A stretch of 37,598 nt of DNA from an uncultured Ruminococcus sp. (GTDB lineage: Bacteria; Bacillota; Clostridia; Oscillospirales; Acutalibacteraceae), in assembly GCA_902777275.1 (NCBI GenBank), contig CACYTI010000026.1, positions 1 to 37,598 on the forward strand, written 5' to 3'. Each line of letters opens with the position of its first letter. The stretch's first letter is position 1. A program made the position numbers and the translations under genes. Below are positions 5,248 through 22,958 of the stretch, piece after piece. Below the pieces are notes generated by a model. The model ran no database searches. It had not been told where the DNA came from and saw only the letters and a list, made by a program, of their open reading frames with translations.

Positions 5248-5841
5248 ATGGGAGAAAAAATCTTTGATTTACTCAAAAGCTTAGCAACCGGTAATAAAAG
5301 CAAAAAATTCTGGGGAGCACTGATAGTAATATTCATTATCGTATTAATAGTATTTCCATATCTAGATGCAAATTTCTTTTACTATAATAGAATTGAAAAA
5401 AGAATTGATAATCTAACCTCCATTGTAGAATTAAATGATGATAAAATTCACAAAAATCAAGGTTTGCTTTTGGAATACGAAAGTATAATTCGAGAAATAA
5501 ATGACGCAAATCAAAAGAGTCTAAATACATTTAATAACAGTACGGATAATGAGTTTGACTTCTGGGCAAAAGCTATCAGTGGAGGTCTCTTATTTGCTAT
5601 TATTGGCATTATTGGTTTATTCAAAAAGAATAATACAAAAATGACTTTTTCGGTTTTCTTTAAAAATAATTTTTTGATTTTTATCGTTTGTTCACTATTT
5701 GCTGTTATACTTTCATTCATCTTTTCTAAAATTCCTACACTGGGAAATGTTTGGGTTAATGTAATTGCTGCACCTATTGTTGAATTAATTATAATTTACC
5801 TGTTTACAAAATCAAATAACAAAAAGGATGAGGTAAAATGA
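5248..5841 (+). CDS. Hypothetical membrane protein with coiled coil and four helices
   Basis: This 197-residue protein matches no family I recognise. One membrane segment is near the N-terminus (about 21-39, GALIVIFIIVLIVFPYL). A charged, probably coiled-coil stretch follows (about 45-100). Three more helices lie at about 108-125, 143-160 and 167-187, before a lysine-rich tail. The start follows AAGAAAGAGAG. It lies 15 bp after the AAA/DUF4143 gene, and its stop overlaps the recombinase start (ATGA), so all three are probably co-transcribed. It is strongly AT-rich, like the KAP gene. An effector or sensor role with the ATPases is possible but unproven. Confidence 0.75.
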   Translation: MGEKIFDLLKSLATGNKSKKFWGALIVIFIIVLIVFPYLDANFFYYNRIEKRIDNLTSIVELNDDKIHKNQGLLLEYESIIREINDANQKSLNTFNNSTDNEFDFWAKAISGGLLFAIIGIIGLFKKNNTKMTFSVFFKNNFLIFIVCSLFAVILSFIFSKIPTLGNVWVNVIAAPIVELIIIYLFTKSNNKKDEVK

Positions 5842-9636: not shown

Positions 9637-11271
9637 TTATCCTAAATCTTCAATCATCTGTGCAAGGTACATTTGCAGGTACGTGGCGTCAGAGATGTCC
9701 ACTTTGCCGTTGCCGTTTATGTCGGCTGCGATAAATGAGTCGCCTGTAAGAAGCTCAAACTCCGCTATATGCCGCTGCATCGCGGTCACGTCGCTGATGT
9801 TCGCCGCTCCGCTGCCGTCCGCGTCGCCCGGCGAAATAACGGGCTTCGCGGCAAGCTCAAAGCTATAGCTTCCGCTGCAATTGATGAAGGAGGCTTTTAT
9901 GTAATAGGTCTCTCCTTTTTTGACATCGCAGGGCAATTGTGACGCGTCGCTGAAATCGGGTGAACGGGAAATCAGGAATTCGGGATACGCGCTGTCCTCT
10001 CCGATGCGCAAATCCGCAAGCTCTGCGCTTAACGTGCCGTCGCTGTCGGGGATAAAGCGGTAGTAAACCGTATCCCCGCAGAATTCATCTTCGCTGTCGT
10101 TGCTGCACACCATGCCAAGCTCATATTCAAAAATATCGGTAAAGTACAGCTCAAGCCCGCTTATTCCCGAGGCTGTTATTTCAATGGTGTAGGTTTCGCC
10201 TGATTTGGTTAAGAACAAATTGCTCTCGGTAATGTCATGGTTATGCTCGCGCTTTTTCGACAGATTCGCGACCCTTTTGCCTGCGGAATCATATGCCGTG
10301 ACTGACAAAAAGGCTGAATCATCAAAATCGCACGGATCGTCGTTTGTGAGCCATAACTCGGTGTTGTCCGCCGCCGTGACAGTGACGGTTCTTGTTTCGC
10401 CGTCATTCAAACCTCTTATCAAAAGCAAGCTTCCAGTCGTATACGTAAACGGCTCGTCTGCCTGTTCATCTGTCCATTTCAGGCGGGGATGGGCTTCTCC
10501 TATCTCATCCGCGATAAACGCGCCCGTGAACTCGGCTGTGTAGTCCTTTGAGCTGTCGTAGGAGTCGATAGTCAAAGCATCCGAGTCGCTGAATTTTACG
10601 GAGTATTTGTGTCCGGTCACAAGCTCAATGCCGTGAGCGCCGAAGTCGAAGCTCCATGTGTCGGCGTCTTCGTCCCTTTTCATTCTGCCATTCCACAGGA
10701 CTGACTCCCCGTTGGTTTCGTCATAGGCTTCGCAGTACACCGCGCGTCCGGCTCCGAACGCGTCGTCATCGGCGCGGACGCGGATAACATCAACTCCTGC
10801 TTTATCGTCATTTTCTCCGAGCCATTTGTATTTGAACACAGGTGTTGAATCATAGGAATGCCATGTGTATATATCGGAGAAAACCGCTGTGTACTCCCTT
10901 GCGCTGTCATATTCCGTTATGGTAAGCTGCTCGGTTTGGGCTTTGCCCCAATCGTCGGTAAAAATAACGCTGTATTCGTGAGACGGGTCAAGCTCTGCGC
11001 CGCGCTCGCCGAGGTCGCAGCTCCACATTCCGGAGGCTCCGTCCTTTGTCATAACTCCCTTTTTGGAGCCCCATTTGACGATTTCGGCGCTGTCGGTTTG
11101 GTCATAAATATAGCAGCACATTTTTGTAACGTTCGTGAATGTGTCGGGGGCAACGTCAATGCTGATGACCGCGCGGCTTTCGGAAGCCGCATATGCTTCG
11201 CCTGTTCCGGCGCAAATCACTGTGACGGACATTGAAGCGGTGAGTACAATTGATAATAATTTGTTTTTCAT
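9637..11271 (-). CDS. Secreted dockerin type I protein with two repeats of a novel module
   Basis: The start chosen is the ATG at 11271 (MKNKLLSIVLTASM), because AAAGGA is 11 bases before it; the ATG at 11283 would have its ribosome site too close. A signal peptide ends near residue 28 (AYA). Two homologous modules follow (about 36-140 and 150-255), each with a C-x-IYD or YD-x-T start, a W-x-S-KK or W-x-x-R segment, W-(S/C)-x-D and YDS(A/S)-(R/K)-(E/D)YTA. A beta-rich part (about 265-470) resembles PPC-type domains. A type I dockerin closes the protein, with calcium loops DADGSGAANISD and DINGNGKVDISD. Dockerins bind cohesins on scaffoldins. No catalytic domain was recognised. The gene lies 19 bp after the sigma factor gene, whose C-terminus carries the same module. 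Confidence 0.85.
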   Translation of the reverse strand: MKNKLLSIVLTASMSVTVICAGTGEAYAASESRAVISIDVAPDTFTNVTKMCCYIYDQTDSAEIVKWGSKKGVMTKDGASGMWSCDLGERGAELDPSHEYSVIFTDDWGKAQTEQLTITEYDSAREYTAVFSDIYTWHSYDSTPVFKYKWLGENDDKAGVDVIRVRADDDAFGAGRAVYCEAYDETNGESVLWNGRMKRDEDADTWSFDFGAHGIELVTGHKYSVKFSDSDALTIDSYDSSKDYTAEFTGAFIADEIGEAHPRLKWTDEQADEPFTYTTGSLLLIRGLNDGETRTVTVTAADNTELWLTNDDPCDFDDSAFLSVTAYDSAGKRVANLSKKREHNHDITESNLFLTKSGETYTIEITASGISGLELYFTDIFEYELGMVCSNDSEDEFCGDTVYYRFIPDSDGTLSAELADLRIGEDSAYPEFLISRSPDFSDASQLPCDVKKGETYYIKASFINCSGSYSFELAAKPVISPGDADGSGAANISDVTAMQRHIAEFELLTGDSFIAADINGNGKVDISDATYLQMYLAQMIEDLG

Positions 11272-11290
11272 AATAAACACCATCCTTTTG

Positions 11291-12793
11291 TTATTTCCAT
11301 TTTGCGTAATAAGTCATTTGAGGATTGTCAACATGAGCCTTTGTAGGGTCGGGTTCGACAAGCATGACCGCGCCGTAGTCCGCTGTGGAAAATTCCAGCG
11401 CCTCGGTTTGCGAGCCTGTGGTGGTACCGAACATCACATAATAGGTCTTGCCGTCTTCGAGATTCAGCGGGTTCAGGTCATAGCTGTAAAGCTTACCGGA
11501 ATCGAGAGTGCAGTATTCTTTTTTGCTTGCCCATTCATAAAAGCTTGAAGTGCTATCGTAAATGTGACAGAAGATCTGCCCGAAGTCACCGACAAAGCCG
11601 CTTGCGTCTATGCAGACCTTCCTCTGTTCGGCAGGGACCGTTACGGGAACGGTCGTTGCGGGCGCGACTGTCGCCGAAGTTGCCGCAGCGGCAGGATTCG
11701 TCGCCTGAGCTGCCTGTGAGTTTGTCGGACTTTGTGAGGGAATTGTCTGTGAGGTGTTTTGCTGAGCCTGAACGACCGGCTGAGTTGCCTGAATACGTGC
11801 CTGAGTCGGGACCGTGCTCTGATTTATATTAGAGCCAGAATTGCCCGATATATTGCGGGCAGTCGGAGGCACGGTGGTGAGAGGCATGGTTGTCGGTACG
11901 TTTTGCCCGGGATTTTCAGGCTGACCCGCCGTGCGGTGATAACCGTAGCCCGGCTTTGCAGGAGAAGCGGGGTTTCCTGACGTGAACGCTCCCGATGCCG
12001 CCGCGCCTATTCCGCCGATCACCGTGATACACGCCGCGCCTATAGCCGCGATTTTTACGGAGGTCACTCCGCCCGACGCCGCCGAGTTGACGGCAGCGAC
12101 CTTTACCGCTCCAGCAGGCGTTGCGTAGGGGATAAGAATTGCCTTTTGCATCTCCGCGCCCTGAATCAGACTGAACGAAAGCAATGACATCGGAGGCACC
12201 GAACAGGACGCAAGAGCCGCGCCGCCGTATTGCTCCAGATATTTTTTCATTGTCTGACGCGCCGAGTACAGACGGCTTTTTACGGTGTTCTCATTGACCT
12301 CCAATACATCCGCGATTTGCCTGATGCTCATTTGATAAAAATAGAACATCAAAACGCTTTCGCGGAGGATCTGCGGCAAAGCTCCCACCGCTTCTCTCAC
12401 ATAGCCGCATACCTCCCCGGTTTCCGCCGATCTCTCGGGACAAAGCTGATCGTTTTCGTCGGCAAGCTCCCACTCGACTTCGCTCAGACTGAGGTTTTCC
12501 CTTGAACGCGTGAGCTTTGTTTTGCAGTAGTTCGCGGCAATCGTTTTCAGCCAGCCCAAAAACGCCTTAGGGTCTTCGAGTGTGTCTAACTTTTTGAGCA
12601 CGGTCAGTAAAATATCCTGAACCGCGTCCTTAGCATCCTCCTCGTTGCCTAACAGGGTGAGGCTGTAATAATAAAGATATCCGCTCACTATGTTGATAAC
12701 GTCTTCCATCGCCTTTTTGCTGCCGTTCTGCGCTTTGGCTACCCGGTGTGAAAGCTTTGCGTTATCTATTTTGTATTTAGGCTGTTTGTTCAT
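11291..12793 (-). CDS. ECF-type sigma factor fused to a membrane segment and extracytoplasmic module
   Basis: The start chosen is the ATG at 12793 (MNKQPKYKIDN) with GAGGG eight bases upstream; a longer frame to 12913 lacks such a site. Of 500 residues, sigma region 2 covers about 36-95 (LLGNEEDAKDAVQDILLTVLK) and region 4 about 138-186 (LPQILRESVLMFY... and IRQIADVLEVNENTVKSRL). Next comes a single hydrophobic helix (about 246-268), then a linker of about 115 residues rich in T, Q, P and A. A C-terminal module (about 391-500: VCIDASGF, CHIYDSTSSFYEWASKKEY) resembles the two modules of the dockerin protein downstream. The order suggests a membrane-tethered sigma factor whose outer domain senses a signal, instead of a separate anti-sigma factor. 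Release by proteolysis is conjecture. The target promoters are unknown. Confidence 0.85.
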   Translation of the reverse strand: MNKQPKYKIDNAKLSHRVAKAQNGSKKAMEDVINIVSGYLYYYSLTLLGNEEDAKDAVQDILLTVLKKLDTLEDPKAFLGWLKTIAANYCKTKLTRSRENLSLSEVEWELADENDQLCPERSAETGEVCGYVREAVGALPQILRESVLMFYFYQMSIRQIADVLEVNENTVKSRLYSARQTMKKYLEQYGGAALASCSVPPMSLLSFSLIQGAEMQKAILIPYATPAGAVKVAAVNSAASGGVTSVKIAAIGAACITVIGGIGAAASGAFTSGNPASPAKPGYGYHRTAGQPENPGQNVPTTMPLTTVPPTARNISGNSGSNINQSTVPTQARIQATQPVVQAQQNTSQTIPSQSPTNSQAAQATNPAAAATSATVAPATTVPVTVPAEQRKVCIDASGFVGDFGQIFCHIYDSTSSFYEWASKKEYCTLDSGKLYSYDLNPLNLEDGKTYYVMFGTTTGSQTEALEFSTADYGAVMLVEPDPTKAHVDNPQMTYYAKWK

Positions 12794-12903
12794 ATCGTTT
12801 CCCTCGCTTTCCTCACTTTTTGCCCTCTTCATTAAAAAGGACTCAAAAGCACGGAAAAGGTTTGATGCTTTTTTTAAAAAAATTTTATTATTTTTTTGAT
12901 ACC

Positions 12904-12932
12904 ATGATAACATTAAACCGCAGGGTTGTCCA
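12904..12932 (-). promoter_or_regulatory. Promoter of the sigma-dockerin operon
   Basis: On the minus strand the -35 is TGGACA, the spacer is 17 bp and the -10 is TATCAT. It lies about 110 bp before the chosen ATG and leaves a leader very rich in A and T. Confidence 0.6.
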
Positions 12933-12961: not shown

Positions 12962-13001
12962 AAAAGCCCCGTAAGAACCTGCGGTGTTCTGCGGAGCTTT
13001 T
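12962..13001 (-). terminator. Terminator of the eight-gene operon
   Basis: On the minus strand AAAAGCTCCGCAGAAC pairs imperfectly with GTTCTTACGGGGCTTTT across a 7-base loop. It begins seven bases after the last ligase stop, and the tail is TTTTGCTTAT. It separates the biosynthetic operon from the sigma factor promoter. Confidence 0.7.
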
Positions 13002-13007
13002 AATTCC

Positions 13008-14411
13008 TTATTTTAACCGTGACGCGGCGTCGGCAATTACGCGGAAGCTGTCTATCCGCTCGTGGCGCATGACCTGTCCGTTAAACCGCTCTACCGCTTC
13101 CGAAATATCTTCTTCGGTGTTTTTGACATATAAGTCGGCGTTCAGGCGGTTGTTGTTCAGATACAGCCTGACCTCTGTAATATTGCCGCTGAGCGAGCGG
13201 AGAAGGGCACAAAGAGCTTCAACGTCTATGTTCTTGCCGTTGTCGCCGACAAGGATATTCTTCTTTCTGCCCCTGATGTACAGCTTGCCGTCCTTGATCA
13301 TGCCGAGGTCGCCCGTGTGGAAGTAACCGTTTTCGTCAAAGGCGGCTGCTGTAAGCTCCGGGTCAAGATAGCCCGGAAAAACGGTGTCGCCCTTGCAGAT
13401 GATCTCGCCTATGCCGTTTTCGTCGGGGCGGAAAACCTTTGCGTCAATGCTGTCAAACACGGTTCCGCAGCTTGCGTCGTCGTCGCCGAAATAGCTTATC
13501 GAAAAGGAGGCGGCGGTCTCGGACAGACCGTAAGAGCGAATAAGAGGGAAGGAGCTAAGCGTGGTGCGTATCTCGTCGGAGCAGGGCGCGCCTCCCGTAA
13601 ACAGGTATTTTATGTTTGTTCCGAAAGCGCTCGTAATGCGGTCGCCGAAGGCGTCAAGCAGGCGCTTGTAGACAAGCGGGACTGCACAGAAAATCGTCGG
13701 GTTGACCTCGCGCAGCTCCTCCGCGATTTTAGAGGGTGACGACGAGAGGTAAATGCTGTATCCTCCGATTAGCGAGTAGTAAAAATTATACACGCCCGCG
13801 TAGGTGTGATGAAGCGGGAGAAACAGGTAGTCGGTGTCGTTTTCACCGAGAGGAACGCGCTTGATAAGCTCGTGATAGCCCGCGAATATCACTTTTTGAG
13901 TAAGCTTTATTCCCTTTGAGGGACCCGTGGTGCCCGAGGAGAAAACTATTTTGCAGCACTCGGCTTCGTCCTTTACGGGCAGGTCAAACAGCGCGGGCGG
14001 AGGGGAAAGGCTGTACAGACAGCTCATGCTCAGGCAGAACATCGGGCGCTTTCTGTTCAGGCTTTCGGCTGTTTTGCTCAGATCGTCGTCATAAATGATC
14101 GCCTTTGCGTCTGTGCGCTCAAGCATTGACAAAATGACGTCCTCGCTCATCTCCTTAGCGAGCATTACGCTTACGCCCGTGTAGCCTGTCACCGCTAAAT
14201 CCGCGACCATAAGCGCGTATGAGTTTTTGCCGATTATTCCCACGGCAGAGCCTGCGGGCACTTTTTTAAGCAGAAGGCGAGCGAGGCTGTGAACGTCCGA
14301 AATAAGCTGGCCGAAGGTTCTGCCACGGAAAACGACGTCCGTTTTTTCAAAGATATACTTTTTATCCTTGCGGTTTTTGTAATCATATTCAAGAATACTG
14401 TTTATGTTCAT
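13008..14411 (-). CDS. Adenylate-forming (AMP-binding) ligase, second of a pair
   Basis: This 467-residue member of the acyl-CoA synthetase/adenylation superfamily activates a carboxylate with ATP. The phosphate loop is IVFSSGTTGPSKGIKL, almost canonical. Motif A5 is SYGLSETAASFS, A7 is YFHTGDLGMI and A8 is RGRKKNILVGDNGKNID. It is shorter than typical acyl-CoA ligases, and the C-terminal lobe ends abruptly at FRVIADAASRLK, so the transfer half-reaction and the catalytic lysine need a structural check. Its ATG overlaps the stop of the other ligase (ATGA), and it is the last gene before the terminator. Fatty acid, amino acid or aryl substrates cannot be told apart by eye. Confidence 0.87.
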   Translation of the reverse strand: MNINSILEYDYKNRKDKKYIFEKTDVVFRGRTFGQLISDVHSLARLLLKKVPAGSAVGIIGKNSYALMVADLAVTGYTGVSVMLAKEMSEDVILSMLERTDAKAIIYDDDLSKTAESLNRKRPMFCLSMSCLYSLSPPPALFDLPVKDEAECCKIVFSSGTTGPSKGIKLTQKVIFAGYHELIKRVPLGENDTDYLFLPLHHTYAGVYNFYYSLIGGYSIYLSSSPSKIAEELREVNPTIFCAVPLVYKRLLDAFGDRITSAFGTNIKYLFTGGAPCSDEIRTTLSSFPLIRSYGLSETAASFSISYFGDDDASCGTVFDSIDAKVFRPDENGIGEIICKGDTVFPGYLDPELTAAAFDENGYFHTGDLGMIKDGKLYIRGRKKNILVGDNGKNIDVEALCALLRSLSGNITEVRLYLNNNRLNADLYVKNTEEDISEAVERFNGQVMRHERIDSFRVIADAASRLK

Positions 14412-15838
14412 AGCTTCCGCTCCAAAAGTTTGAGATAGTTTATTTTTGTGTGATGCTTTACGTCGCGCGGAATGGCGCGGATAAGCTTTACCGTAAAATT
14501 CACGCCGTATTCCTTCCGCAGATATTCCGCAATTGCCGCGCGGTCGGGAGCCTTGTCCTCAAGGAAGAGGTATAAGCCGCCGTCCTTTTCGACCGCGGCG
14601 CATTTTCCGACGGACGGGAACCGCAGGATAAGCCGCTGCTCGATCTCGTTTGAATAGACGGTCCTGCCGTTAAGCCGCAGGCAAAAGCCCGATTTGCCGA
14701 GGTAGTACAGCCTGCCGTCCCTGAAAAAGCCGACGTCGCCCGTGTTGTAATAGCCTTCGCTCAGCTTAACGCCGTCAGTTGACTTTGTAAGCAGGGCGTC
14801 GCTTTTGACGAATATGGTTCCGTTTTCGTCTGTTTTGGCGCTGACGCCGCGGCACACGTCACCGAGCAGACAGTCGCCTGTTTTTTCGAGCGTGTGAAGG
14901 TAGTCGTCAAAATCCACGCTCGCTATCAGGCAGCACTCGGTCGAGCCGTAAATGTGAATTAGCCTGCACGGAAAGACGCGGCGGATCGAAAGCACCTCGC
15001 TCCGGTTGAGTATTGCTCCGCCGCAGTACAGGGTTTTCAGCTTTGGGTACATATTCGGAGTGCGCAGGCAGAAGTCGGGGGTGGTTATTATCATTGTGAC
15101 GTCGCTCAGCGGAAAGCGCCTCAGGCGGCGGATGATTTTTCCCGTCCTTTTTGAACCGAGGTTCACGTTCGGCAGAACGGTCGTAAAGCCGAGCAGGAGA
15201 TTTGCAAAAATGTAAATGTAAGAGGTGGTCAGCACGGTTTCACGCGCGCCCCTTTCGTCCATGTTGTCCGCCACAAGCTTTAGCTGTTGAAACAGATCGA
15301 GGTGGGTGCGGATAAAGAGCTTCGGCTTGCCCGTTGAGCCTGTGGTTACGGTGATAAGCGCGTCGTCCGCATCGTCGGGGTCGGGAGCGGGAGCAGGTGA
15401 AGCCTTGCTATTTGCTGAGCGGTCGATGTTGATGACCGCCTTTATTTTTTTGATTTCGACGAACAGCGCGCGGAAAAATCTTGTTTTGTTTGAAACAAGC
15501 ACAAAAGACGGGCGTGTCTTTTCAAAAACGAGCTGCATATTTTCCTGCCCCGCGTGTATGTCAACATACATGACGCACGCGCCCAACTCAAAGCAGGCTA
15601 TAAGGAACACGCAAAGGTTATAGCCCGATTCGGCAAAGGCGAGCAGCCTGTCGCCGCGCCTTACTCCGTTTTGTACAAGGAAGGCACGGGCTCTGTCCGC
15701 GTCGGCTTTAAGCTCTGAAAAAGAGGTCGGGCGGGGCTTTCCTCTGTCAAGGTGGATAACAGCCGTCCTGTCGGGGTGCTTTTCGCAGACCTGTTCAAAT
15801 GCGTCGATTATCTTGCTCACGTTGTTCACCAAATTCAT
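14408..15838 (-). CDS. Adenylate-forming (AMP-binding) ligase, first of a pair
   Basis: This 476-residue protein is clearly in the AMP-binding superfamily but has an altered phosphate loop, VTTGSTGKPKLFIRTH, where the usual form is SSGTTGxPKG. Other motifs are HIYGSTECC (A5), YYNTGDVGFF (A7), YSNEIEQRL (A8) and PRDVKHHTKINYLKL (A10 region with a conserved-position lysine). It differs strongly from the next ligase, so the two are not a recent duplication and probably act on different acids. Its first 44 bases overlap the end of the BtaA-like gene. No carrier protein gene is nearby, which points to free CoA or a direct acceptor, or to a carrier encoded elsewhere. Confidence 0.86.
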   Translation of the reverse strand: MNLVNNVSKIIDAFEQVCEKHPDRTAVIHLDRGKPRPTSFSELKADADRARAFLVQNGVRRGDRLLAFAESGYNLCVFLIACFELGACVMYVDIHAGQENMQLVFEKTRPSFVLVSNKTRFFRALFVEIKKIKAVINIDRSANSKASPAPAPDPDDADDALITVTTGSTGKPKLFIRTHLDLFQQLKLVADNMDERGARETVLTTSYIYIFANLLLGFTTVLPNVNLGSKRTGKIIRRLRRFPLSDVTMIITTPDFCLRTPNMYPKLKTLYCGGAILNRSEVLSIRRVFPCRLIHIYGSTECCLIASVDFDDYLHTLEKTGDCLLGDVCRGVSAKTDENGTIFVKSDALLTKSTDGVKLSEGYYNTGDVGFFRDGRLYYLGKSGFCLRLNGRTVYSNEIEQRLILRFPSVGKCAAVEKDGGLYLFLEDKAPDRAAIAEYLRKEYGVNFTVKLIRAIPRDVKHHTKINYLKLLERKL

Positions 15839-16889
15839 AAACGAGAAAGTCGCGGTAAAAAAACGCGCGGTTCTGTTTTGTAAGCTGCTCGGACAGCTCG
15901 GTTTGAAGGCTCAGGCGGCTGTCCGAAAAATAACGCTTGTTCTGCATATTGTAATACGCCAATCGCGCTCCGTCGTTTGACAGCTTGCAGAGCTGTTCGG
16001 TGTTCCTGACGAATTCCCCGTCGCTCATATATTCAAAGATGTCGGACAGGTTGAAAAAGTCGTATTTTCCGCTGAGGCTTTCCAAATCTCCGAGCCGCAC
16101 CTCAATGCGGTCAAGGCGCTCTCGTATCACGGGGTAGCTTTCGCGCCGCAAATACAGCGGAAGCGCGCGCTGCGGGTAGCGGTTGAGAAAAATGTAGTTA
16201 GCATACGGGTTGTCGCGGTTTGGAACGTGGGTCAGCGCATAGTCCGTCACTTTTTTTATATTTGCTCCGCTGTCCTCTTTGTTTTCGACATAGTCGTAAA
16301 AGTGCTTGTCCCTGCCGAGCTTTCCCATGGTGCGAAAGCCGAAGAAGGCGTTGAAAACAGCTTTGAAGCGGCGGTTGTTGATGTATTTGTTGTAAAACCG
16401 CGCCTGTTCGTCGATGTCGTCCATTTCGGAGAATTGCTCGAAGCGGCGCTTTGAGGAGAAAAGCGGGATAATTTTTCCGCGGAAAATCTGAAAGTAACGC
16501 TCAAATTTGCCGATGTTTATTATTCCTTTATCGAAATATTCTCTGCGGTCGCGGAAGTATTCAAAAGCCTCTCTGTCCATGCGGTTCTCGAGCGTCAGGA
16601 ACAGCGCGTAGGCGTTTTTGCTTTCAGTAACTCCCAAAAGACGGAGCAGATCATCGTATCCCAACGCCTGAAAGCCCGCCTTTTTCAGATTAAAAAGGTG
16701 GATCTGAGTCGGGTTCACGTCTATTGCGGTTATGTGCGCCGGGTCGCCTGTAAGCAGGGCGAGGGTGTTGTCGCCCGCTGACAGCACGGACACGCCGCTG
16801 CCGCCCTTGATGTTTAGGGAGCCCAAAAGGTTTTCGGGATCCTCCCAGCAGTTGGCGTAACGTATAAAATCAAATTTTGCCTGTTCCAT
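15795..16889 (-). CDS. BtaA-like (DUF3419) SAM-dependent aminocarboxypropyl transferase
   Basis: The start chosen is the ATG at 16889 (MEQAKFDFIRYANCWEDPENLL), preceded by CTGGAGGAACACG; a longer frame to 17048 is only overlap with the preceding gene. The 364-residue product shows the DUF3419 marks: YANCWEDP near the N-terminus, the SAM-binding VLSAGDNTLALL, AIDVNPTQIHLFNLKKAG, and FFNLSDIFEYMSD. BtaA in Rhodobacter moves the 3-amino-3-carboxypropyl group of SAM to diacylglycerol in betaine lipid synthesis. The usual partner, the N-methyltransferase BtaB, is absent. The acceptor here could be a lipid, a sugar or a small alcohol. The gene overlaps the upstream PEP-utilising enzyme gene by 20 bases. 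Confidence 0.85.
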   Translation of the reverse strand: MEQAKFDFIRYANCWEDPENLLGSLNIKGGSGVSVLSAGDNTLALLTGDPAHITAIDVNPTQIHLFNLKKAGFQALGYDDLLRLLGVTESKNAYALFLTLENRMDREAFEYFRDRREYFDKGIINIGKFERYFQIFRGKIIPLFSSKRRFEQFSEMDDIDEQARFYNKYINNRRFKAVFNAFFGFRTMGKLGRDKHFYDYVENKEDSGANIKKVTDYALTHVPNRDNPYANYIFLNRYPQRALPLYLRRESYPVIRERLDRIEVRLGDLESLSGKYDFFNLSDIFEYMSDGEFVRNTEQLCKLSNDGARLAYYNMQNKRYFSDSRLSLQTELSEQLTKQNRAFFYRDFLVYEFGEQREQDNRRI

Positions 16890-19407
16890 CGTGTTCCTCC
16901 AGAATAGTAACCGTGCCGCCCACGCCGTCCACACGCACCCTCGCTCCGTCGGGCACCCTTTCGGTAAGCCTCCGAATTCCCACCACGAGCGGAATGCCCA
17001 TTTCTCGGGCGATGACCGCCGAGTGGGACAGAACGCTTCCGCGCTCAATTATTATTGCCTTTGCCATGGGGAAGAGTATCGTCCAGCCGGGGTCGGTGCG
17101 CTTAGCCATCAAAATCAAGCCGTTTATGTCCGCCTCTGTCGGCTCGGTAACAAGCTTTACAACGCCCTCAACGGCTTTGCCTCCACCCGGTGTGCCGCGC
17201 AGCACGCTGACGCTTTCCCCGTCGGAAACCTCCTGCGGGCTGAAAACGGGAAGCATATTTTCGCTTTTGACCTCTCCGTAAAAGTACATTCGCTCGAAAA
17301 CTTCCTTCGGCTTGTTTTCTTCGTATTCTCTTCGGCGAAGGGCGACAAGCCCGCGCAGGTCGCCGATATACTGCCCTGCCGCGATCGCGGTGATCTCGTC
17401 CTTTTCAAGGAAGAAAATGTCGCGATAGCTTTCAAGCTTGCCCTCGGCGGCGAGATTTTTTCCGACACGCAGGAAAATATTGCGGACTATGGCGTAGATG
17501 TAGGTGCGGCGCAGCCGCAGGCTCTCGCGGTTGCGTATAAAAAATTTTGTGATTATTATAAGCCGCTTTACATACAGGCAGCTAAGGGGAGAGTAATGTC
17601 TGTAAATCTCGGGCTCGCGGTTCGGCTTAGGCTCGGCGGAGACAGGGCGCGGCTCAATGCGAAGGTAGTTTTCGATCGTTTTGAACAGAAAAGTCGGGTC
17701 CTCCTGCATGGTCACGGTCTCAAGCTTTAGCTCGTCCATGCAGCGCGCGCCGAAGCGGGCTATGTAGTCGTTTAGCCTGCGCGCCGTCGGGGAAACGTTT
17801 TCGAGTGAAAAGGTTCCGTTTAGAAATTGCTGTTTCAGCGCGTCGTCAGCCTTGATCTCCTCCACGATATCAAGCAGCATGGCGGTCTGTTCCGCGCTTT
17901 CAACGTTGCCCTGTTTGCTCAGAATGTCGCTGAGTATCCCCTCGCCGTCGCTTACGCCGTGCTTTTTAAGGTTATCGGTCAGCAGCCCGAAGAACACCAT
18001 AGCGCCCATATCGTTGGCGATAGGCGTTGTAAAATCGTTCAGTATCTGCTTTTCGAGATTGTCGTAAACGGCAAGCGCCTCGGAGTTTGTCATGCCGTCA
18101 AAGGTGCTGTTGACGTAAGGCGCTGTCACCGTGTTGAAGCGCTCGATAAAGCTTTTGCTGTCGCGCTTCATGCGGAGCATTTTATACAGAAAGCGCACGT
18201 AGATTTTTATTAAGCGGCGGCTCGATTGGGCGGAGGTCTCCTTCAGCGGAGTTTTTACGCCCATCATTTTTTCCATGTATTTTTTGTTTTGCTCATATCT
18301 CGGATAGAGCGAGGTCATCTTGTACCAGCTGTTTAGCCTGTAATATATTTTGTTTTCATAAAAGCACAGCATATGGTTGAGGTCGTCGTCAATGCTGCGG
18401 ATAACTTCCTCGCCGATAAAAAAGCTGCGCAGGGTCTGGTGGTAGATTTTGCCGTATACCTCCTGCGCGAATGTGAAGGTAAGGGGAGTGGTCACGCCCG
18501 AATAGCTTTCGATGATGTTTGAGTTGTCGAGGATCGTCCGTTCAAGGCGCTTGTTGATGTGCGAGCAGGAAGCAATGGGACGGCACTGCAAAATGTAGAC
18601 CTCGCCGTCCTTTACCGCAAACTCGATGTCGCAGCCGCGCTTGATCTTGTAGCTGTCCTCGATGATCCGCGCCTGACGCGCAAGCTCGCGGAGAAGCGCT
18701 TTGTCGGCGTTGCCGCCCGAGCTGATCATCTCGTCAAAGCAGTCCAGAACGTAGTCCTCGCTGTCGGAGCTGCCCGACACAAGCTGTTCGCCGAGCCCCG
18801 CAACGGTGCTGATGTAGCATTCGTCGGGATTGTTGGTGTAGGGGTTTACGGTAAAAATAACTCCCGAAAGCTCGGGGTCAACCATTTCCTGAATAATAAC
18901 AGCCGCGCCGATATCTTTTGATATGCCGCCGTTTTGGGCGCGGTATTCCATGGCTCTCGCCGAAAAGCACGACAGCCAGCATTTTTTTATTGTATCGGTC
19001 ATGCTTTCATCAGCCTTTACGTTGAGAAAGCTCTCCATCATTCCCGCGAACGAGCGTTCGGCGGAGTCCTCGTCTGTCGCGCTGGAGCGCACCGCAAGAA
19101 GGGCTCCTTCGGTAAGGCTCGCCTTTATCGCTTTGAACAGCGAGTTTTTCAGGGTGTTCGGGAAGGAGATATCGTTCAGCAGCGAGGCGATCTTTTCACC
19201 GCAGCCCGTACCGTTTTCCGACAGCAGGCGCTCGTATTCCGCGCGGTGTTTGCCGAGGAAGGAATAAAAAAACTCCGTATCCAAACAGATCCAGCGGGGG
19301 ATTTTTATCCCGTAAGCGTCGCTCAGCCCGTCGAGGTGCAGCAGATTGTACGCCTTGCCGCCAATCAATTTCGGAGAAGCGTTCGCAGTTTTGTTATCGC
19401 AAATCAT
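16870..19407 (-). CDS. PEP-utilising dikinase-type phosphotransferase (rifampin phosphotransferase architecture)
   Basis: The 845 residues have an N-terminal PPDK/PEP synthase ATP-grasp domain (about 1-285, with GGKAYNL and AVRSSATDEDSAERSFAGMMESFLNV at 105-130). A long helical middle follows (about 290-735), then the mobile histidine domain. The swivelling catalytic histidine is H795 in RGSVLSHSAVIAREMGIP. The PEP/pyruvate TIM barrel of true PEP synthase is missing. The same order and nearly the same length are found in rifampin phosphotransferase, where the middle domain binds the acceptor and the beta phosphate of ATP is passed through the histidine. So this is probably a kinase for a pathway intermediate rather than a gluconeogenic enzyme. 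Its ATG overlaps the previous stop (ATGA). Confidence 0.87.
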   Translation of the reverse strand: MICDNKTANASPKLIGGKAYNLLHLDGLSDAYGIKIPRWICLDTEFFYSFLGKHRAEYERLLSENGTGCGEKIASLLNDISFPNTLKNSLFKAIKASLTEGALLAVRSSATDEDSAERSFAGMMESFLNVKADESMTDTIKKCWLSCFSARAMEYRAQNGGISKDIGAAVIIQEMVDPELSGVIFTVNPYTNNPDECYISTVAGLGEQLVSGSSDSEDYVLDCFDEMISSGGNADKALLRELARQARIIEDSYKIKRGCDIEFAVKDGEVYILQCRPIASCSHINKRLERTILDNSNIIESYSGVTTPLTFTFAQEVYGKIYHQTLRSFFIGEEVIRSIDDDLNHMLCFYENKIYYRLNSWYKMTSLYPRYEQNKKYMEKMMGVKTPLKETSAQSSRRLIKIYVRFLYKMLRMKRDSKSFIERFNTVTAPYVNSTFDGMTNSEALAVYDNLEKQILNDFTTPIANDMGAMVFFGLLTDNLKKHGVSDGEGILSDILSKQGNVESAEQTAMLLDIVEEIKADDALKQQFLNGTFSLENVSPTARRLNDYIARFGARCMDELKLETVTMQEDPTFLFKTIENYLRIEPRPVSAEPKPNREPEIYRHYSPLSCLYVKRLIIITKFFIRNRESLRLRRTYIYAIVRNIFLRVGKNLAAEGKLESYRDIFFLEKDEITAIAAGQYIGDLRGLVALRRREYEENKPKEVFERMYFYGEVKSENMLPVFSPQEVSDGESVSVLRGTPGGGKAVEGVVKLVTEPTEADINGLILMAKRTDPGWTILFPMAKAIIIERGSVLSHSAVIAREMGIPLVVGIRRLTERVPDGARVRVDGVGGTVTILEEHDGTGKI

Positions 19408-19877
19408 TTTTTCGCCAACCTTGTTTTATAGATAAAAAAGCCGACCGACAGCAGCAGGGAGCCGCACAGATACAGGATCACCCACAGGCTTCCTATCTCT
19501 TTGTAGGCGGCAATGTAAAATGCGGATACAAGCGTCAGGAAAAACGGTTTCATCAGCTCAAAGCGGTTTTGCATCAGGGCGTAAGCCGCAAGCAGAACGG
19601 AGATAAGCCCGTACAATCGGAAAAAACAGATGTTCAGCGCGACAAAGACCGCGCAGAAAATAATCAGGAGCAGTCTTAGTGTGGATTTTGAAAGCGGTTT
19701 TTCCTTTGTGTCGGTATCGTAGTCGAAATAATCATCAAAAAATCTGAGGATATATGCAAGCAGGGTGAACAGAGGGAGCAGCTCCCAACGGACGCCTTGG
19801 GTCAGCAGGCTTATAAGCGCCGCAAAAAAGAGCGCGATAAGAAGGTAAAAGGCGTACTTTAACAAATACTTGATCAT
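19404..19877 (-). CDS. Half-size UbiA-like membrane protein
   Basis: The 157 residues contain about five hydrophobic helices. After the second is RFFDDYFDYDTDTKEKPLSKS (from about residue 45). DDxxDxxxD at 48-56 fits the first aspartate-rich motif of UbiA prenyltransferases (NDxxDxxxD), with the asparagine replaced, and the following KPL is also typical. UbiA enzymes are about 280-300 residues with a second aspartate motif, which is missing here. The frame is intact and coupled by ATGA overlaps to both neighbours, so truncation by decay is unlikely. It may act as a dimer, or it may be a UbiA relative that only binds a prenyl or lipid diphosphate. Confidence 0.65.
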   Translation of the reverse strand: MIKYLLKYAFYLLIALFFAALISLLTQGVRWELLPLFTLLAYILRFFDDYFDYDTDTKEKPLSKSTLRLLLIIFCAVFVALNICFFRLYGLISVLLAAYALMQNRFELMKPFFLTLVSAFYIAAYKEIGSLWVILYLCGSLLLSVGFFIYKTRLAKK

Positions 19878-20929
19878 TTGATAACCTTGTTATATATTTC
19901 CGCCTTGGCAAACAGCAGGGTTTGACTGACCCCGGCAAAGCCGCAAAGCTTTTTCAGCTCGTCCTTCGGCTTTTGGCGGATGATTTCATTTTTCAACAGC
20001 GCTTCGCCCTGCTCCCTTGTGAGCTGACCCGAGCGCACAAGCACGCTTGTTTCGGGAAGACGGTGCGGTCTGCCCTCAGCGCGCTGATAAATATATTTAG
20101 CGGCGTTGTGTACTTCGCAGTCATAGTGGTTGTAATCGTCGGGAGGCGACCACGGCGTGTTGTTTTTCAGCCAGCTTACTATCTCGCTTTCATCGTAGGG
20201 ATGATACAGAAAATAGGGGACAAATTCGCGCAGATCGCTTGTATCGATGCCGTCGAATGCTATGGCGCGGATATCCTCGAATATATCGGCGTCAACCTTT
20301 TCCTTCACGCTTTCGAGCAGATCCATATAGCATTTGCCGAAATCCATGTCCCTGCTGTCCTCAAGTCCCCAGTCAATGAAGCGGCTGAAAACGTCGAGCG
20401 GGTAGCTGCGGAGCATTTGCTCGGGCGATCTGCCATGAACGCAGATTCCCGCGTCAATGCGCGCCGCGTAGCCTATCATGGAGGCGTAGCCGATGTAAGA
20501 GCAGGCTATGCAGGGGACAAGCAGCTTTGACATGGAATAGTTATAGACCCGTTTGAGAGTCTGAACATCGAAGCTGATGTATTCGTGCTCTGCGCCGAAT
20601 GCGCTGACGAGCCTGTCGATATTCTCCTTTGCCTGAGCGGACAAGAAGCCGTTGTCCATCGTAAAGGCTTTCACCCTCAGCCCATAGCGTTCAGTGAGCT
20701 GACTCAGGACATAGGCGCTGTCCTTGCCGCCCGAAATGCCGACCGCCGCGTCGTAGAGGTGCCGCCCTTTTATCCGCTCAATACGTTTGTCAAAGAGCTT
20801 TTGAAGCGTTTCAAAATCGTTTAGCCTGCCGCTGATTTTGTCATATTCGCGGCAGAAATTGCAGACGCCCTCGCTGTCAAAGCTGATGTGTCTTACGGAG
20901 TTGTCGTTAAGACATCTTTTGCAAACCAT
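19874..20929 (-). CDS. PP-loop ATPase of the N-acetyl sugar amidotransferase (WbpG/PseA-like) type
   Basis: The 351-residue protein starts with a four-cysteine zinc site (C3, C6, C23, C26). An N-type ATP pyrophosphatase loop follows, GISGGKDSAY (SGGKDS at 66-71). Proteins of this build adenylate a carbonyl or amide and replace it with nitrogen or sulfur. WbpG, PseA and LegG-type members make acetamidino sugars with a separate glutaminase, and none is encoded in this window. A second CxxC (CIAC, about 143-146) might carry sulfur. The start ATG shares a base with the upstream stop (TAATG). The exact reaction is not decided by sequence. Confidence 0.8.
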   Translation of the reverse strand: MVCKRCLNDNSVRHISFDSEGVCNFCREYDKISGRLNDFETLQKLFDKRIERIKGRHLYDAAVGISGGKDSAYVLSQLTERYGLRVKAFTMDNGFLSAQAKENIDRLVSAFGAEHEYISFDVQTLKRVYNYSMSKLLVPCIACSYIGYASMIGYAARIDAGICVHGRSPEQMLRSYPLDVFSRFIDWGLEDSRDMDFGKCYMDLLESVKEKVDADIFEDIRAIAFDGIDTSDLREFVPYFLYHPYDESEIVSWLKNNTPWSPPDDYNHYDCEVHNAAKYIYQRAEGRPHRLPETSVLVRSGQLTREQGEALLKNEIIRQKPKDELKKLCGFAGVSQTLLFAKAEIYNKVIK

Positions 20930-21816
20930 TACTCCAACTCCTTAACAAATACGGCGTAGCGTTTTTCCTTGGATTCTATGTCGCTGTCAAAGCGCCTGAA
21001 CGTGCTTCGCTGCTCGCACTCAAAGTGATAGACTACGTCTTTGAATCCCAAATCTGAAATGTGGCTGTAGCCTAAATAAACCAGTGCAAGGTACAGCTTG
21101 TTGTGTTGGAATTCCCTGCGCACAGCGGTTGTCTTTGATATGTAGTCGTCCGGATCGCAGGGATTGACATAGCCCATTGAAAAGCCCGCCGCCCTGCCGT
21201 TATAAAATGCGACGATCATTTCAAGGCGCGGAATAAGGCGCGTCCATGAAAGATATATTTCACGGAACTCCTCGCGGGAAATTTCCGAGTAGAGATATCC
21301 GCCCGAAAAGGCGTCCCTGCATATGTCGAAGATATCGTCGGCGAGCGCGTAGGCTTCTTCTCCCGCGAAAAACCTGAAGGTGAAGCCCTCGTTTAGCTTT
21401 TGGCGGTGCACCGCTTCCCCGATTGAGAAAAGCTTGTTGTCAAGCCTGACATGGGCGCTGCGGTAGGTGTAAAGCTCCTTATAGCCGAGTCTGCGGATGA
21501 AATCAATATGGTACGACTCGTTGTCGCAGTCGGGAAAGTATTTAACGTCAAAGTCGTTGAGCGCCCAGCGGTAGGACATCCAGGTGTTGTAGTTCATGGG
21601 ACCGAACAGCCGCTTGAAGCCGAGCTCCTTCGCGCGGCGCTCCGCTTTTTCAAACAGCCCCTGTGCGGCTTCAAAGTCGTTTTCGAGATCCACAAAGCCG
21701 AACATACACTTGTCCTCTTTGAGGTTGTTGTTGACGATAAGATAACAGGAGGAGCCCCGGTATTCTATCCGCTCGCTGTAGTCGGCGGATGATAATATTT
21801 TCAATTGTTCATTCAT
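20929..21816 (-). CDS. GNAT-fold acyltransferase-like protein
   Basis: This is a 295-residue protein. Around residues 60-90 it has RAKELGFKRLFGPMNYNTWMSYRW, a segment seen in GNAT-related proteins of biosynthetic clusters (G-P-N-x-x-x-W-x-x-Y). A second GNAT-like part includes EMIVAFYNGRAAGFSMGYVNP and a C-terminal LALVYLGYSHISDLGFKDVVYHFE. The canonical acetyl-CoA loop (Q/RxxGxG/A) is not obvious, so the acyl donor may not be acetyl-CoA. It sits second in the operon, with its ATG overlapping the kinase stop. Acylation of an amine made by neighbouring enzymes is a reasonable guess. Confidence 0.68.
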   Translation of the reverse strand: MNEQLKILSSADYSERIEYRGSSCYLIVNNNLKEDKCMFGFVDLENDFEAAQGLFEKAERRAKELGFKRLFGPMNYNTWMSYRWALNDFDVKYFPDCDNESYHIDFIRRLGYKELYTYRSAHVRLDNKLFSIGEAVHRQKLNEGFTFRFFAGEEAYALADDIFDICRDAFSGGYLYSEISREEFREIYLSWTRLIPRLEMIVAFYNGRAAGFSMGYVNPCDPDDYISKTTAVRREFQHNKLYLALVYLGYSHISDLGFKDVVYHFECEQRSTFRRFDSDIESKEKRYAVFVKELE

Positions 21817-22883
21817 AAATCTTCCTCTAAAATTTCGGTGAGCTTGTCCGCGCCGCTTAACAGCGAGTCCACAAAGCCCTCGCCGAGCACCTTGCCCGCT
21901 ATGCGCAGCAAAGAAAGGCGAATGACGATGAACTCATAGGCATTAAACAGCAGCAGCTCTTTGTATTGCTTGCTGTCCATTCCGCGCAAAGGCGGCGCGT
22001 GGGGAGACAGGCGGCTTTTGTGATAGTCGATCAGCTCAAGGATCTCGCGGCGGCTAAGATTCTCCGCCTCATAAATGAGCAGCTCAATCAGGTCGTGCTC
22101 GGGGTTCTGGAACGCGGCGAGCTCAAAGTCGTAAATCAACGTTTTGTTTTCGGTGAAAAAGATATTCCGACGTGAGAAATCGTTATGAGAAAAGCTGCGG
22201 TGGTGCGAGAACCGCGCGGCGTAAAGGTGGATTTTGTCGATGAAGCGCTCGATTTTGTTCAGCTTTTGTTCGCTGAAATACCGCCTGTTCTCTTCCTCGT
22301 CGGCATGGAACAGCAGTCGGATGAATCCGCGCGAGCGGCGATAATCCTTCGGTGAACAGATGTTCAGCCCGAGCCGCTTCGCCTGATCCTCACGGTTATA
22401 GTAGAATATGTGGAAGTCAAGCAGCGTGTTCAGCGCGCGCTTTGCAGCGGAGAACCTGTGAGTGCCGTCGCTGACAGGGAAATAACGTCGGAGGATAAGA
22501 CTGTAAAGCCCCGAACGGCGGTCAAAAAAGCTGCCGTAAAAGACGGGCATATGCCGCCGCAGAGACCTGTCAAGATGCTTGTATAGGCTGATTTCCCTTG
22601 TGCAGCTTTTGTTGTAGCCGAGTATTTTTTTGTGCAGCGTCATGCTGAGCGTGAAGCGCGCGCTTTTTCCGCTTATCAGCCGTATGCCGTTGCGTATGAT
22701 ACGCGGTGATTTCACCTTGCGGACACAGTCGAGCAAGCTGCCGTCCGCAAAACCGACGCGCAGAAAATAAATGCCGTTTTCGCCGAGGGCAATGCGGTTG
22801 TTTATGCTTGAAACGCCCTCGGGAAGCGATTCTTCAACGCTGACTATCCGTTTTTCAAAAAGTGATTGAAGCTGATTGGTCAT
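21813..22883 (-). CDS. APH/choline-kinase-like phosphotransferase, first gene of the operon
   Basis: Within 356 residues the catalytic loop FSHNDFSRRNIFF is visible (H233, D235, N240; HxDxxxxN), followed by LIYDFELAAFQNPEHDL (metal-binding D252). This is the aminoglycoside phosphotransferase/choline kinase/LPS core kinase fold. The N-terminal lobe is basic and diverged, with REISLYKHLD as the likely glutamate helix. Substrates of such kinases are hydroxylated sugars, choline-like alcohols or lipid-linked sugars. It would be the second phosphotransferase of the operon, alongside the PEP-utilising enzyme. The ribosome site before the ATG is weak (CCGGAAC). Confidence 0.75.
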   Translation of the reverse strand: MTNQLQSLFEKRIVSVEESLPEGVSSINNRIALGENGIYFLRVGFADGSLLDCVRKVKSPRIIRNGIRLISGKSARFTLSMTLHKKILGYNKSCTREISLYKHLDRSLRRHMPVFYGSFFDRRSGLYSLILRRYFPVSDGTHRFSAAKRALNTLLDFHIFYYNREDQAKRLGLNICSPKDYRRSRGFIRLLFHADEEENRRYFSEQKLNKIERFIDKIHLYAARFSHHRSFSHNDFSRRNIFFTENKTLIYDFELAAFQNPEHDLIELLIYEAENLSRREILELIDYHKSRLSPHAPPLRGMDSKQYKELLLFNAYEFIVIRLSLLRIAGKVLGEGFVDSLLSGADKLTEILEEDL

Positions 22884-22929: not shown

Positions 22930-22958
22930 ATTATAGCAAGTTATATGAATTAAGTCTA
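22930..22958 (-). promoter_or_regulatory. Promoter of the eight-gene operon
   Basis: On the minus strand the -35 is TAGACT, the spacer is 17 bp and the -10 is a perfect TATAAT, about 47 bp before the kinase ATG. No clear operator was recognised around it, and no regulator gene is linked. Confidence 0.6.

What the first reader, a model, noticed from the sequence alone, without database searches (positions are those of the whole stretch)
13008..22883. Eight-gene, translationally coupled operon for an unknown product
Seven consecutive junctions overlap (ATGA four times, one TAATG, one 20-base and one 44-base overlap). A promoter stands before the first gene and a terminator after the last. The combination (APH-like kinase, GNAT, sugar-amidotransferase-type PP-loop ATPase, half-size UbiA protein, PEP-type phosphotransferase, BtaA-like aminocarboxypropyl transferase, two AMP ligases) is not a pathway I know. 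Family knowledge suggests an aminocarboxypropyl-bearing, acylated and phosphorylated molecule, perhaps lipid- or prenyl-linked. That product guess is inference.
Basis: partly seen in the sequence, partly recalled or inferred. Interest (0 to 1): 0.88.

Follow-up and report, generated by a model that had tools for sequence, protein, structure and literature searches.

The report
Widespread gene cassette, product unknown
Eight tightly coupled genes in a gut bacterium form one version of a biosynthetic gene set that turns up, rearranged but recognisable, in many bacterial groups, and that probably builds an amino-acid-bearing membrane-associated molecule not yet identified.

Summary
Eight minus-strand genes (22883 to 13008) overlap at all seven junctions as described.

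The operon is not peculiar to this genome. The same eight genes in the same order occur in an unnamed Clostridia genome of another family (L007) and in 10 of 18 "clade A" loci; several of the other eight are cut by contig ends.

A related form ("clade B") has UbiA, PEP-type enzyme, DUF3419, a membrane protein I read as a lipid-alcohol kinase, GNAT and AMP ligase: all six in 22 of 25 loci with enough flank. Loci with DUF3419 and a PEP-type gene carry 20 phylum-level labels.

The DUF3419 is not a betaine-lipid BtaA: it branches apart (98/97 support) and has no adjacent BtaB.

HMG-CoA reductase lies in 29 of the 80 loci. In 11 of 11 such genomes tested it is the only copy, with DXR present and HMG-CoA synthase not found.

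My reading: an undescribed pathway to an aminocarboxypropyl-bearing, probably membrane-associated metabolite. One pathway: well supported. Product: inferred. The half-size UbiA lacks the second catalytic motif, so "prenyl-linked" is doubtful here. Nine full-text searches found no description.

The parts
21813..22883 (-). Gene 1: APH/choline-kinase-like small-molecule kinase, 356 aa
   Evidence: PF01636 35.2 bits vs cut-off 23.2; HxDxxxxN motif in 15 of 15 homologues; a related kinase domain is fused to an HMG-CoA reductase in L045
20929..21816 (-). Gene 2: GNAT acyltransferase with an extra N-terminal half, 295 aa
   Evidence: PF00583 in 18 of 18 members of A2 at E up to 1, window member E 0.01; conserved W79, Y82, R83
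19874..20929 (-). Gene 3: PP-loop ATPase, WbuX-like, 351 aa
   Evidence: TIGR03573 144.5 bits vs cut-off 203.2; SGGKDS and CxxC...CxxC in 16 of 16
19404..19877 (-). Gene 4: half-size UbiA-like membrane protein, 157 aa, first Asp motif only
   Evidence: R45, D48, D52, D56 invariant in A3; AlphaFold pLDDT 91.8; UbiA homologues lead the Foldseek list
16870..19407 (-). Gene 5: PEP-synthase-like (Rph/PigC-type) phosphotransferase or ligase, 845 aa
   Evidence: PPDK_N + PEP-utilizers; best solved relatives 5fbs/5hv1, E about 2e-60; LSH[SAT]A His motif in 69 of 70 homologues
15795..16889 (-). Gene 6: DUF3419 (BtaA-related) aminocarboxypropyl-transferase candidate, 364 aa
   Evidence: PF11899 3.7e-62; AlphaFold pLDDT 94.1; tree
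14408..15838 (-). Gene 7: AMP ligase 1, PRK09274/OleC-like, 476 aa
   Evidence: PF00501 1.2e-35; best NCBIfam model NF006754, 135 bits vs cut-off 478
13008..14411 (-). Gene 8: AMP ligase 2, MenE-like, 467 aa; last residue a Lys, as in the other seven rows printed
   Evidence: PF00501 2.9e-44; TIGR01923 143 bits vs cut-off 330; C-termini
22930..22958 (-). Candidate promoter, TAGACT-17-TATAAT with TG before the -10
   Evidence: 15 sites found vs 7.7 expected in the region
12962..13001 (-). Candidate terminator hairpin after gene 8
   Evidence: z -4.3 for the stretch; not listed by the pattern scan

Best explanation
The operon is one version (clade A, mainly Bacillota and Saccharibacteria) of an undescribed biosynthetic cassette found widely in bacteria. 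Its recurring core is a DUF3419 enzyme, a PEP-synthase-like enzyme, a GNAT, an AMP ligase, a UbiA-type membrane protein and one alcohol kinase (APH-type in clade A; in clade B a membrane protein I read as phytol/dolichol-kinase-like).

Proposed mechanism. The kinase phosphorylates an alcohol. DUF3419 moves the 3-amino-3-carboxypropyl group of SAM onto an oxygen of the acceptor. The AMP ligase activates a carboxylic acid that the GNAT transfers to an amine, perhaps that of the new group. The Rph/PigC-type enzyme makes an ATP-dependent phosphoryl transfer or condensation. The UbiA-type protein holds or prenylates the intermediate in the membrane. In clade A the PP-loop enzyme and second AMP ligase add an amide, amidine or second acyl group. 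Where present in clade B, the HMG-CoA reductase would reduce a CoA thioester to an alcohol that feeds the kinase.

Shown: the gene set, its conservation, its separation from BtaA, and motifs. Inferred: every chemical step, the order of steps and the product. That the genes form one pathway I hold at about 0.9, that DUF3419 is an aminocarboxypropyl transferase at about 0.7, and a membrane-associated lipid-like product at about 0.5.
For: Same eight genes in the same order in L007, an unnamed Clostridia genome of another family, at 29-53% identity for the seven genes scored (half-size UbiA matched over 99 aa only); the GNAT there was found by eye and by profile. The same order holds in 10 of 18 clade A loci.

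Presence beside DUF3419 in the 80 best loci: PEP-type 76, UbiA-type 65, AMP ligase 1 65, GNAT 64, kinase-like membrane protein 53, HMGR 29, PP-loop 14, APH 13. The set survives reordering, e.g. L041 vs L052 vs L073.

Pairwise distances of the genes correlate across loci in 21 of 21 family pairs, with 0 of 200 permutations as high for each.

APH and the kinase-like protein are not both found in any of the 80 loci. L045, which lacks the latter, carries an APH domain fused to HMGR (25% identity to gene 1 over 221 alignment columns, E 2e-18 for this one comparison).

HMGR is the sole copy in 11 of 11 genomes where it was found, with DXR present and HMG-CoA synthase and mevalonate-PP decarboxylase not found.

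A sequenced Roseinatronobacter strain has the six-gene form on a plasmid (L091).
Against: No product or activity is known to me for any cassette member. The kinase reading of the clade B membrane protein rests on recalled motifs: Pfam (two proteins), NCBIfam (one) and the PDB profile search gave nothing. K[ST]xEG[ST] is in 45 of 57 and [RK]KxxH in 57 of 57.

The half-size UbiA lacks the second Asp motif, and Foldseek E-values are above 0.1. L023 (Saccharibacteria) shows only APH, GNAT, PEP-type and DUF3419 with about 10 kb on both sides, so the fixed core may be smaller, or part of the pathway may lie elsewhere. Four of 80 loci show no PEP-type gene.

HMGR is not universal: of the 30 genomes searched, 11 of 20 clade B and 0 of 10 clade A have it. 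Genomes reached through loci come without completeness values, so absences there may be gaps.

The 80 loci were the best hits to a query built from cassette members, so the counts are biased towards it. The permutation test does not control for species relatedness. Clade B is one branch in only 59% of bootstrap trees.
Confidence: 0.55

Rival explanations
1. It is a betaine-lipid (DGTS-type) locus: DUF3419 acts as BtaA on diacylglycerol and the other genes are bystanders.
For: PF11899 E 3.7e-62. BtaA is the described member of the family (recalled; betaine-lipid papers were seen as listings).
Against: A BtaB-like methyltransferase adjoins DUF3419 in three Rhizobiaceae loci (L092, L094, L095); over the ORFs of the other 87 loci the only phmmer hit at E 1e-3 is a weak one (E 1.5e-4) about 7 kb away in L057. 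Cassette DUF3419 is a separate branch (98/97). Scores to the cassette profile are 360-525 vs 108-160 bits.
Confidence: 0.08
2. It is a cluster of antibiotic-modifying enzymes (APH, GNAT, Rph-like) with unrelated neighbours.
For: Three genes belong to families that include resistance enzymes; closest solved relatives of gene 5 are 5fbs/5hv1, which I recall to be rifampin phosphotransferase.
Against: Far below the resistance models' cut-offs: APH(2'')-IIa 19.6 vs 625 bits, rph 235.8 vs 999 bits. Relatives of the GNAT and the PEP-type gene travel with DUF3419, UbiA and AMP ligases under many phylum labels.
Confidence: 0.03
3. Mevalonate-conjugate pathway: HMGR supplies mevalonate, the AMP ligase activates it and the GNAT transfers it, as in the mevalonyl branch of fungal siderophores (SidI, SidH, SidF).
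For: HMGR inside clade B cassettes, sole copy in 11 of 11 genomes; DKK in 29 of 29, and the Glu, GQDxA and AH catalytic regions kept in the six rows printed (residues recalled); clade B ligases fit NF006754 best and OleC beta-lactone-synthetase models next; the opening of the abstract of PMC3709128 names SidI as mevalonyl-CoA ligase and SidH as mevalonyl-CoA hydratase.
Against: HMG-CoA synthase not found in 12 of 12 HMGR genomes, and HMG-CoA lyase over its cut-off in only 3 of these 12, so about half have no recognised HMG-CoA source. The window's genome has no HMGR match, so this cannot be the whole story for clade A.
Confidence: 0.15
4. Surface-glycan tailoring operon: the WbuX-like PP-loop enzyme aminates a sugar, the others decorate it.
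For: TIGR03573 144.5 bits, E 5.1e-42.
Against: Below that model's cut-off (203.2 bits). The PP-loop gene was not found in the clade B loci nor in L023 and L027. No glycosyltransferase family appears among the hits shown for the eight genes.
Confidence: 0.08

Closest known systems
BtaA/BtaB betaine-lipid synthesis
   Same: DUF3419 enzyme that can take the aminocarboxypropyl group of SAM (function of BtaA recalled)
   Different: Separate branch of the family; no BtaB next to it; seven other coupled genes
Rph / PigC / RedH (PEP-synthase-like ligases and phosphotransferases)
   Same: ATP-grasp domain plus mobile His domain; clade B member of L008 scores 340 bits to PigC, window member 238
   Different: Far below the curated cut-offs (PigC 1300, Rph 999); no prodigiosin or rifamycin context seen
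Fungal mevalonyl siderophore branch (SidI-SidH-SidF)
   Same: HMGR product, AMP ligase and acyltransferase logic, clade B only
   Different: Likeness of logic only, sequence homology not tested; no recognised HMG-CoA source in about half of the HMGR genomes; no HMGR in the 10 clade A genomes searched
OleC-type beta-lactone synthetases (PRK09274 group)
   Same: AMP ligase 1 and its clade B counterparts in L041 and L008 fit NF006754 best
   Different: Below cut-off (135, 365 and 283 vs 478 bits); no OleA/B/D-type neighbours noticed, not searched for
WbuX/PseA N-acetyl sugar amidotransferases
   Same: PP-loop and two CxxC pairs
   Different: Below cut-off; no glycan genes among the hits shown for the eight

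Membership tests
BtaA/BtaB betaine-lipid system | DUF3419 domain | tested here: met
   PF11899 E 3.7e-62
BtaA/BtaB betaine-lipid system | Adjacent BtaB-type N-methyltransferase | tested here: not met
   phmmer with the L092 methyltransferase over ORFs of 90 loci: adjacent only in L092, L094, L095; L057 weak and about 7 kb away
BtaA/BtaB betaine-lipid system | Groups with BtaA in a tree | tested here: not met
   5 outgroup rows split off at 98/97, clade A 97/99
BtaA/BtaB betaine-lipid system | Aminocarboxypropyl transfer to diacylglycerol | not testable with these tools
   needs enzyme assay
UbiA prenyltransferases | First Asp-rich motif | tested here: met
   invariant R45/D48/D52/D56 in 25 rows; pattern in 70 of 70
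UbiA prenyltransferases | Second Asp-rich motif and full length | tested here: not met
   157 aa; the region carrying it in clade B (motif recalled) is absent from all 16 half-size rows
UbiA prenyltransferases | Pfam UbiA (PF01040) | tested here: not met
   no family for the window protein; met for clade B L008 and L010
UbiA prenyltransferases | UbiA fold of the part present | tested here: inconclusive
   best hits 4od5/4od4/7bpu/6m31, probability 0.98-1.00 but E 0.24-0.51
Rph/PigC PEP-synthase-like family | ATP-grasp plus mobile His domain | tested here: met
   PF01326 8e-57, PF00391 2e-20; LSH[SAT]A in 69 of 70
Rph/PigC PEP-synthase-like family | Curated cut-off of a named enzyme | tested here: not met
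   Rph 235.8 vs 999, PigC 238.1 vs 1300 bits
WbuX sugar amidotransferase | PP-loop SGGKDS and zinc CxxC pairs | tested here: met
   16 of 16
WbuX sugar amidotransferase | TIGR03573 cut-off | tested here: not met
   144.5 vs 203.2 bits
WbuX sugar amidotransferase | Glutaminase/cyclase partners (recalled) | not tested
   none among the eight genes; not searched genome-wide
Aminoglycoside phosphotransferase (resistance) | Resistance-model cut-off | tested here: not met
   best 19.6 vs 625 bits
Mevalonate pathway (clade B HMGR) | HMG-CoA synthase, mevalonate kinase and mevalonate-PP decarboxylase in the same genome | tested here: not met
   0 of 12 HMGR genomes for PF01154 and for TIGR01240; mevalonate kinase 0 of 12 over cut-off, with weaker matches in 9 of 12; genome completeness not given

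The most novel reading that the evidence does not exclude
A new class of bacterial membrane-associated amino lipid or lipid-like signal, built on an aminocarboxypropyl ether, is made by a horizontally mobile cassette in about twenty phyla. In it an HMG-CoA reductase has been recruited from isoprenoid synthesis as an acyl-CoA-to-alcohol reductase feeding a kinase, and a Rph/PigC-type enzyme does the key phosphoryl-driven step. Gut and oral Bacillota and Saccharibacteria share a re-tooled version with a half-size UbiA.
Probability: 0.35. Interest if true: 0.88.

Novelty: new variant of a known kind. Interest (0 to 1): 0.74.

Why it matters
A gene set kept together through rearrangement and carried under about twenty phylum-level labels, yet in the one annotated record seen (L091) named gene by gene as UbiA, PEP-binding, DUF3419, two hypothetical and AMP-binding proteins, points to a metabolite class that present annotation misses. 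It would give DUF3419 a second function, would explain why some bacteria with the MEP pathway carry a stray HMG-CoA reductase, and can be tested in named strains (Natronospirillum operosum, Sphingobacterium, Roseinatronobacter).

Tried and rejected
Betaine lipid, resistance cluster and glycan tailoring were considered and set aside (see rivals). A mevalonate-conjugate reading looked attractive after HMGR was found, but HMG-CoA lyase passed its cut-off in only 3 of 12 HMGR genomes (three more scored 241, 206 and 187 bits against 246, the other six under 52), so I lowered it. The PDB profile search of the clade B membrane protein gave nothing; DUF3419 gave only MJ0883, and the Foldseek rows shown for its model are mostly methyltransferase folds with low TM-scores, so structure did not test the aminocarboxypropyl function. 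A carrier-protein pattern search near DUF3419 gave six ORFs that look like chance frames. The Lipocone paper PMC12419801 holds similar words; the passages I read describe other neighbourhoods. PMC13001223 on isoprenoid diversity: passages read do not describe the cassette. The other papers were seen as search listings and abstract openings only.

Rows dropped: loci L001-L006 and L009 from the tree; L001-L006 and ORFs shorter than set lengths from motif counts and distance tests.

Motif counts that were not clean: PEP-type R[ST]S[AST] 59 of 70; AMP ligase 1 nucleotide motif 63 of 69 and C-terminal H-x-x-K motif 55 of 69; AMP ligase 2 nucleotide motif 21 of 25 (the window's own ligase 2 reads PSK and was missed); HMGR TTEG 5 of 29, because others read for example TSEG, THEA or TTEA.

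Full report
Observation. The eight ORFs lie on the minus strand at 22883-13008. G+C is 0.52 in the operon against 0.41 to the left and 0.49 to the right. An extended -10 promoter at 22958-22930 and a hairpin at 13001-12962 are plausible ends. The site lies in a 2.59 Mb genome; none of the 97 other relatives searched, 59 of them of the same genus, has a DUF3419 match, so within the genus sampled it is rare.

Gene identities. Pfam and NCBIfam give: APH-like kinase; weak GNAT; WbuX-like PP-loop enzyme below its cut-off; no family for the 157-aa membrane protein; PPDK_N plus PEP-utilizers; DUF3419; two AMP-binding enzymes, the first nearest PRK09274 and the second nearest MenE. The best solved relatives of the PEP-type enzyme are 5fbs and 5hv1, which I recall as rifampin phosphotransferase. 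The half-size membrane protein models well (pLDDT 91.8), and UbiA homologues lead its Foldseek list, with weak E-values. It keeps the first UbiA motif (R45, D48, D52, D56 invariant) and lacks the part that carries the second in clade B.

Relatives. Among 391 Clostridia-class genomes five, including the window's own, match the DUF3419. G209 (another family) has all eight genes in the same order. G445, G236 and G180 have a different set: full-length UbiA, PEP-type enzyme, DUF3419, a membrane protein of about 445 aa and GNAT, with an AMP ligase in G445 and G236 but none seen in the G180 stretch, which reaches the contig end. Beside DUF3419 in these 80 loci: PEP-type 76, UbiA-type 65, AMP ligase 1 65, GNAT 64, the membrane protein 53, HMG-CoA reductase 29, AMP ligase 2 23 (9 of them weak, 170-221 bits, all in clade B loci), PP-loop 14, APH 13. 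Of 25 clade B loci with at least 8 kb on both sides, 22 have all six core genes and 19 have HMGR. Of 18 clade A loci, 10 have all eight genes. Loci holding both DUF3419 and a PEP-type gene carry 20 phylum-level labels, by my count from the labels and presence, taking Melainabacteria and Cyanobacteriota as one and leaving out Spirochaetota, Myxococcota and Nitrospirota. Most are metagenome bins, so some labels may be wrong. Roseinatronobacter sp. S2 carries the six-gene form on a plasmid, annotated UbiA, PEP/pyruvate-binding, DUF3419, hypothetical, hypothetical, AMP-binding (the locus scores for the membrane protein and the GNAT).

One pathway. Gene order differs between lineages while the set stays. 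Pairwise distances correlate in 21 of 21 family pairs (rho 0.46-0.91 over all loci; 0.38-0.80 in clade B alone; 0 of 200 permutations as high in each). Species relatedness is not controlled there.

Not BtaA. In a 90-row tree clade A (21 rows) is one branch (97/99). Five outgroup sequences from Rhizobiaceae plasmids split off at 98/97: three have a BtaB-like neighbour (L092, L094, L095), one lies in a ketoacyl-synthase context (L093), and one, L096, has no annotation and no BtaB hit. Clade B is one branch in 59% of bootstraps. The bootstrap had not fully settled. Cassette loci have no adjacent BtaB.

The reductase. HMGR fits TIGR00533 (361.7 bits, E 4.8e-108 for L044, under its cut-off of 441.8); all 11 genome matches pass the Pfam PF00368 cut-off. 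In 30 chosen genomes, 11 have HMGR, one copy each: 11 of 20 with clade B, 0 of 10 with clade A. Each of these 11 loci holds an HMGR ORF, so the single copy is the cassette's. DXR is present in all 11. HMG-CoA synthase and mevalonate-PP decarboxylase were not found in these 11 or in the genome of L045; mevalonate kinase is never over cut-off, with weaker matches in 9 of the 12. The reductase therefore looks dedicated to this cassette and not to isoprenoid synthesis, unless the genomes are incomplete. HMG-CoA lyase passes its cut-off in only 3 of the 12, so in several genomes HMG-CoA itself has no recognised source, and the true substrate may be another CoA thioester. In L045 HMGR is fused to an APH-type kinase related to window gene 1 (25% identity over 221 columns), in a locus without the kinase-like membrane protein. 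APH and that protein are not both found in any of the 80 loci. I read them as alternative alcohol kinases; that reading rests on recalled motifs of phytol/dolichol kinases, since no library searched recognised the protein.

Mechanism. See best explanation: kinase, DUF3419, AMP ligase plus GNAT and the Rph/PigC-type enzyme act on a membrane-associated acceptor. Only the gene set, its conservation and the motifs are shown. In clade A the PP-loop enzyme and second AMP ligase are extra, and the truncated UbiA may be a scaffold or subunit and not a prenyltransferase.

Literature. Nine full-text searches found no description; DUF3419 occurs by name in four papers, on algae, seed plants, an anther-smut fungus and a picoalga by their titles and abstract openings. 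Only openly licensed PMC papers are held, so a description elsewhere is possible.

Verdict. A real, conserved biosynthetic cassette, undescribed as far as these searches reach, built from known enzyme families. Interest is high for breadth and for the stray HMGR, and moderated by the unknown product.

Noticed in passing
window 11291-12913, minus strand: 540-aa protein with sigma-70 regions 2 and 4 at the N-terminus, then what looks by eye like a membrane helix and a Thr/Pro-rich linker, and a weak CBM26 match (E 0.008, below cut-off) at the C-terminus: a sigma factor apparently fused to a carbohydrate-sensing tail.
   Followed up: no
window 9637-11283, minus strand: Secreted-looking protein whose C-terminus resembles a dockerin by eye (not run against a library).
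   Followed up: no
window 685-1152 and 5838-7364: By eye, an IS200-type transposase and a large serine recombinase: mobile-element genes left of the operon.
   Followed up: no
L045 4612-7362: Single 916-aa ORF joining an N-terminal region, HMG-CoA reductase and an APH-type kinase within a cassette locus.
   Followed up: partly
L093 739-5987: A third DUF3419 context on a conjugative Rhizobium plasmid: ketoacyl-ACP synthase III, oxidoreductase, MBL hydrolase, CoF synthetase, DUF3419.
   Followed up: no
L023 5369-11071; L026 154-1639: Saccharibacteria with reduced cassettes (L023: APH, GNAT, PEP-type and DUF3419 only; L026 is cut upstream and shows nothing of the set downstream), perhaps relying on a host for the rest.
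   Followed up: no
L066 51-6817: Anaeroplasmataceae version with GNAT, PP-loop, PEP-type, DUF3419 and AMP ligase but no UbiA or kinase seen (its 5' side is cut by the contig end); the next ORF starts like a Mur ligase by eye.
   Followed up: no
L056 12426-14369; similar ORFs in L045, L076, L089: RND/MMPL-like exporter ORFs beside the cassette in 4 of 80 loci (label by eye).
   Followed up: no
window 13008-14411 and homologues: AMP ligase 2 ends with a Lys as its very last residue in all eight rows printed (25 rows were held), where I recall canonical ligases continuing past the catalytic Lys.
   Followed up: no
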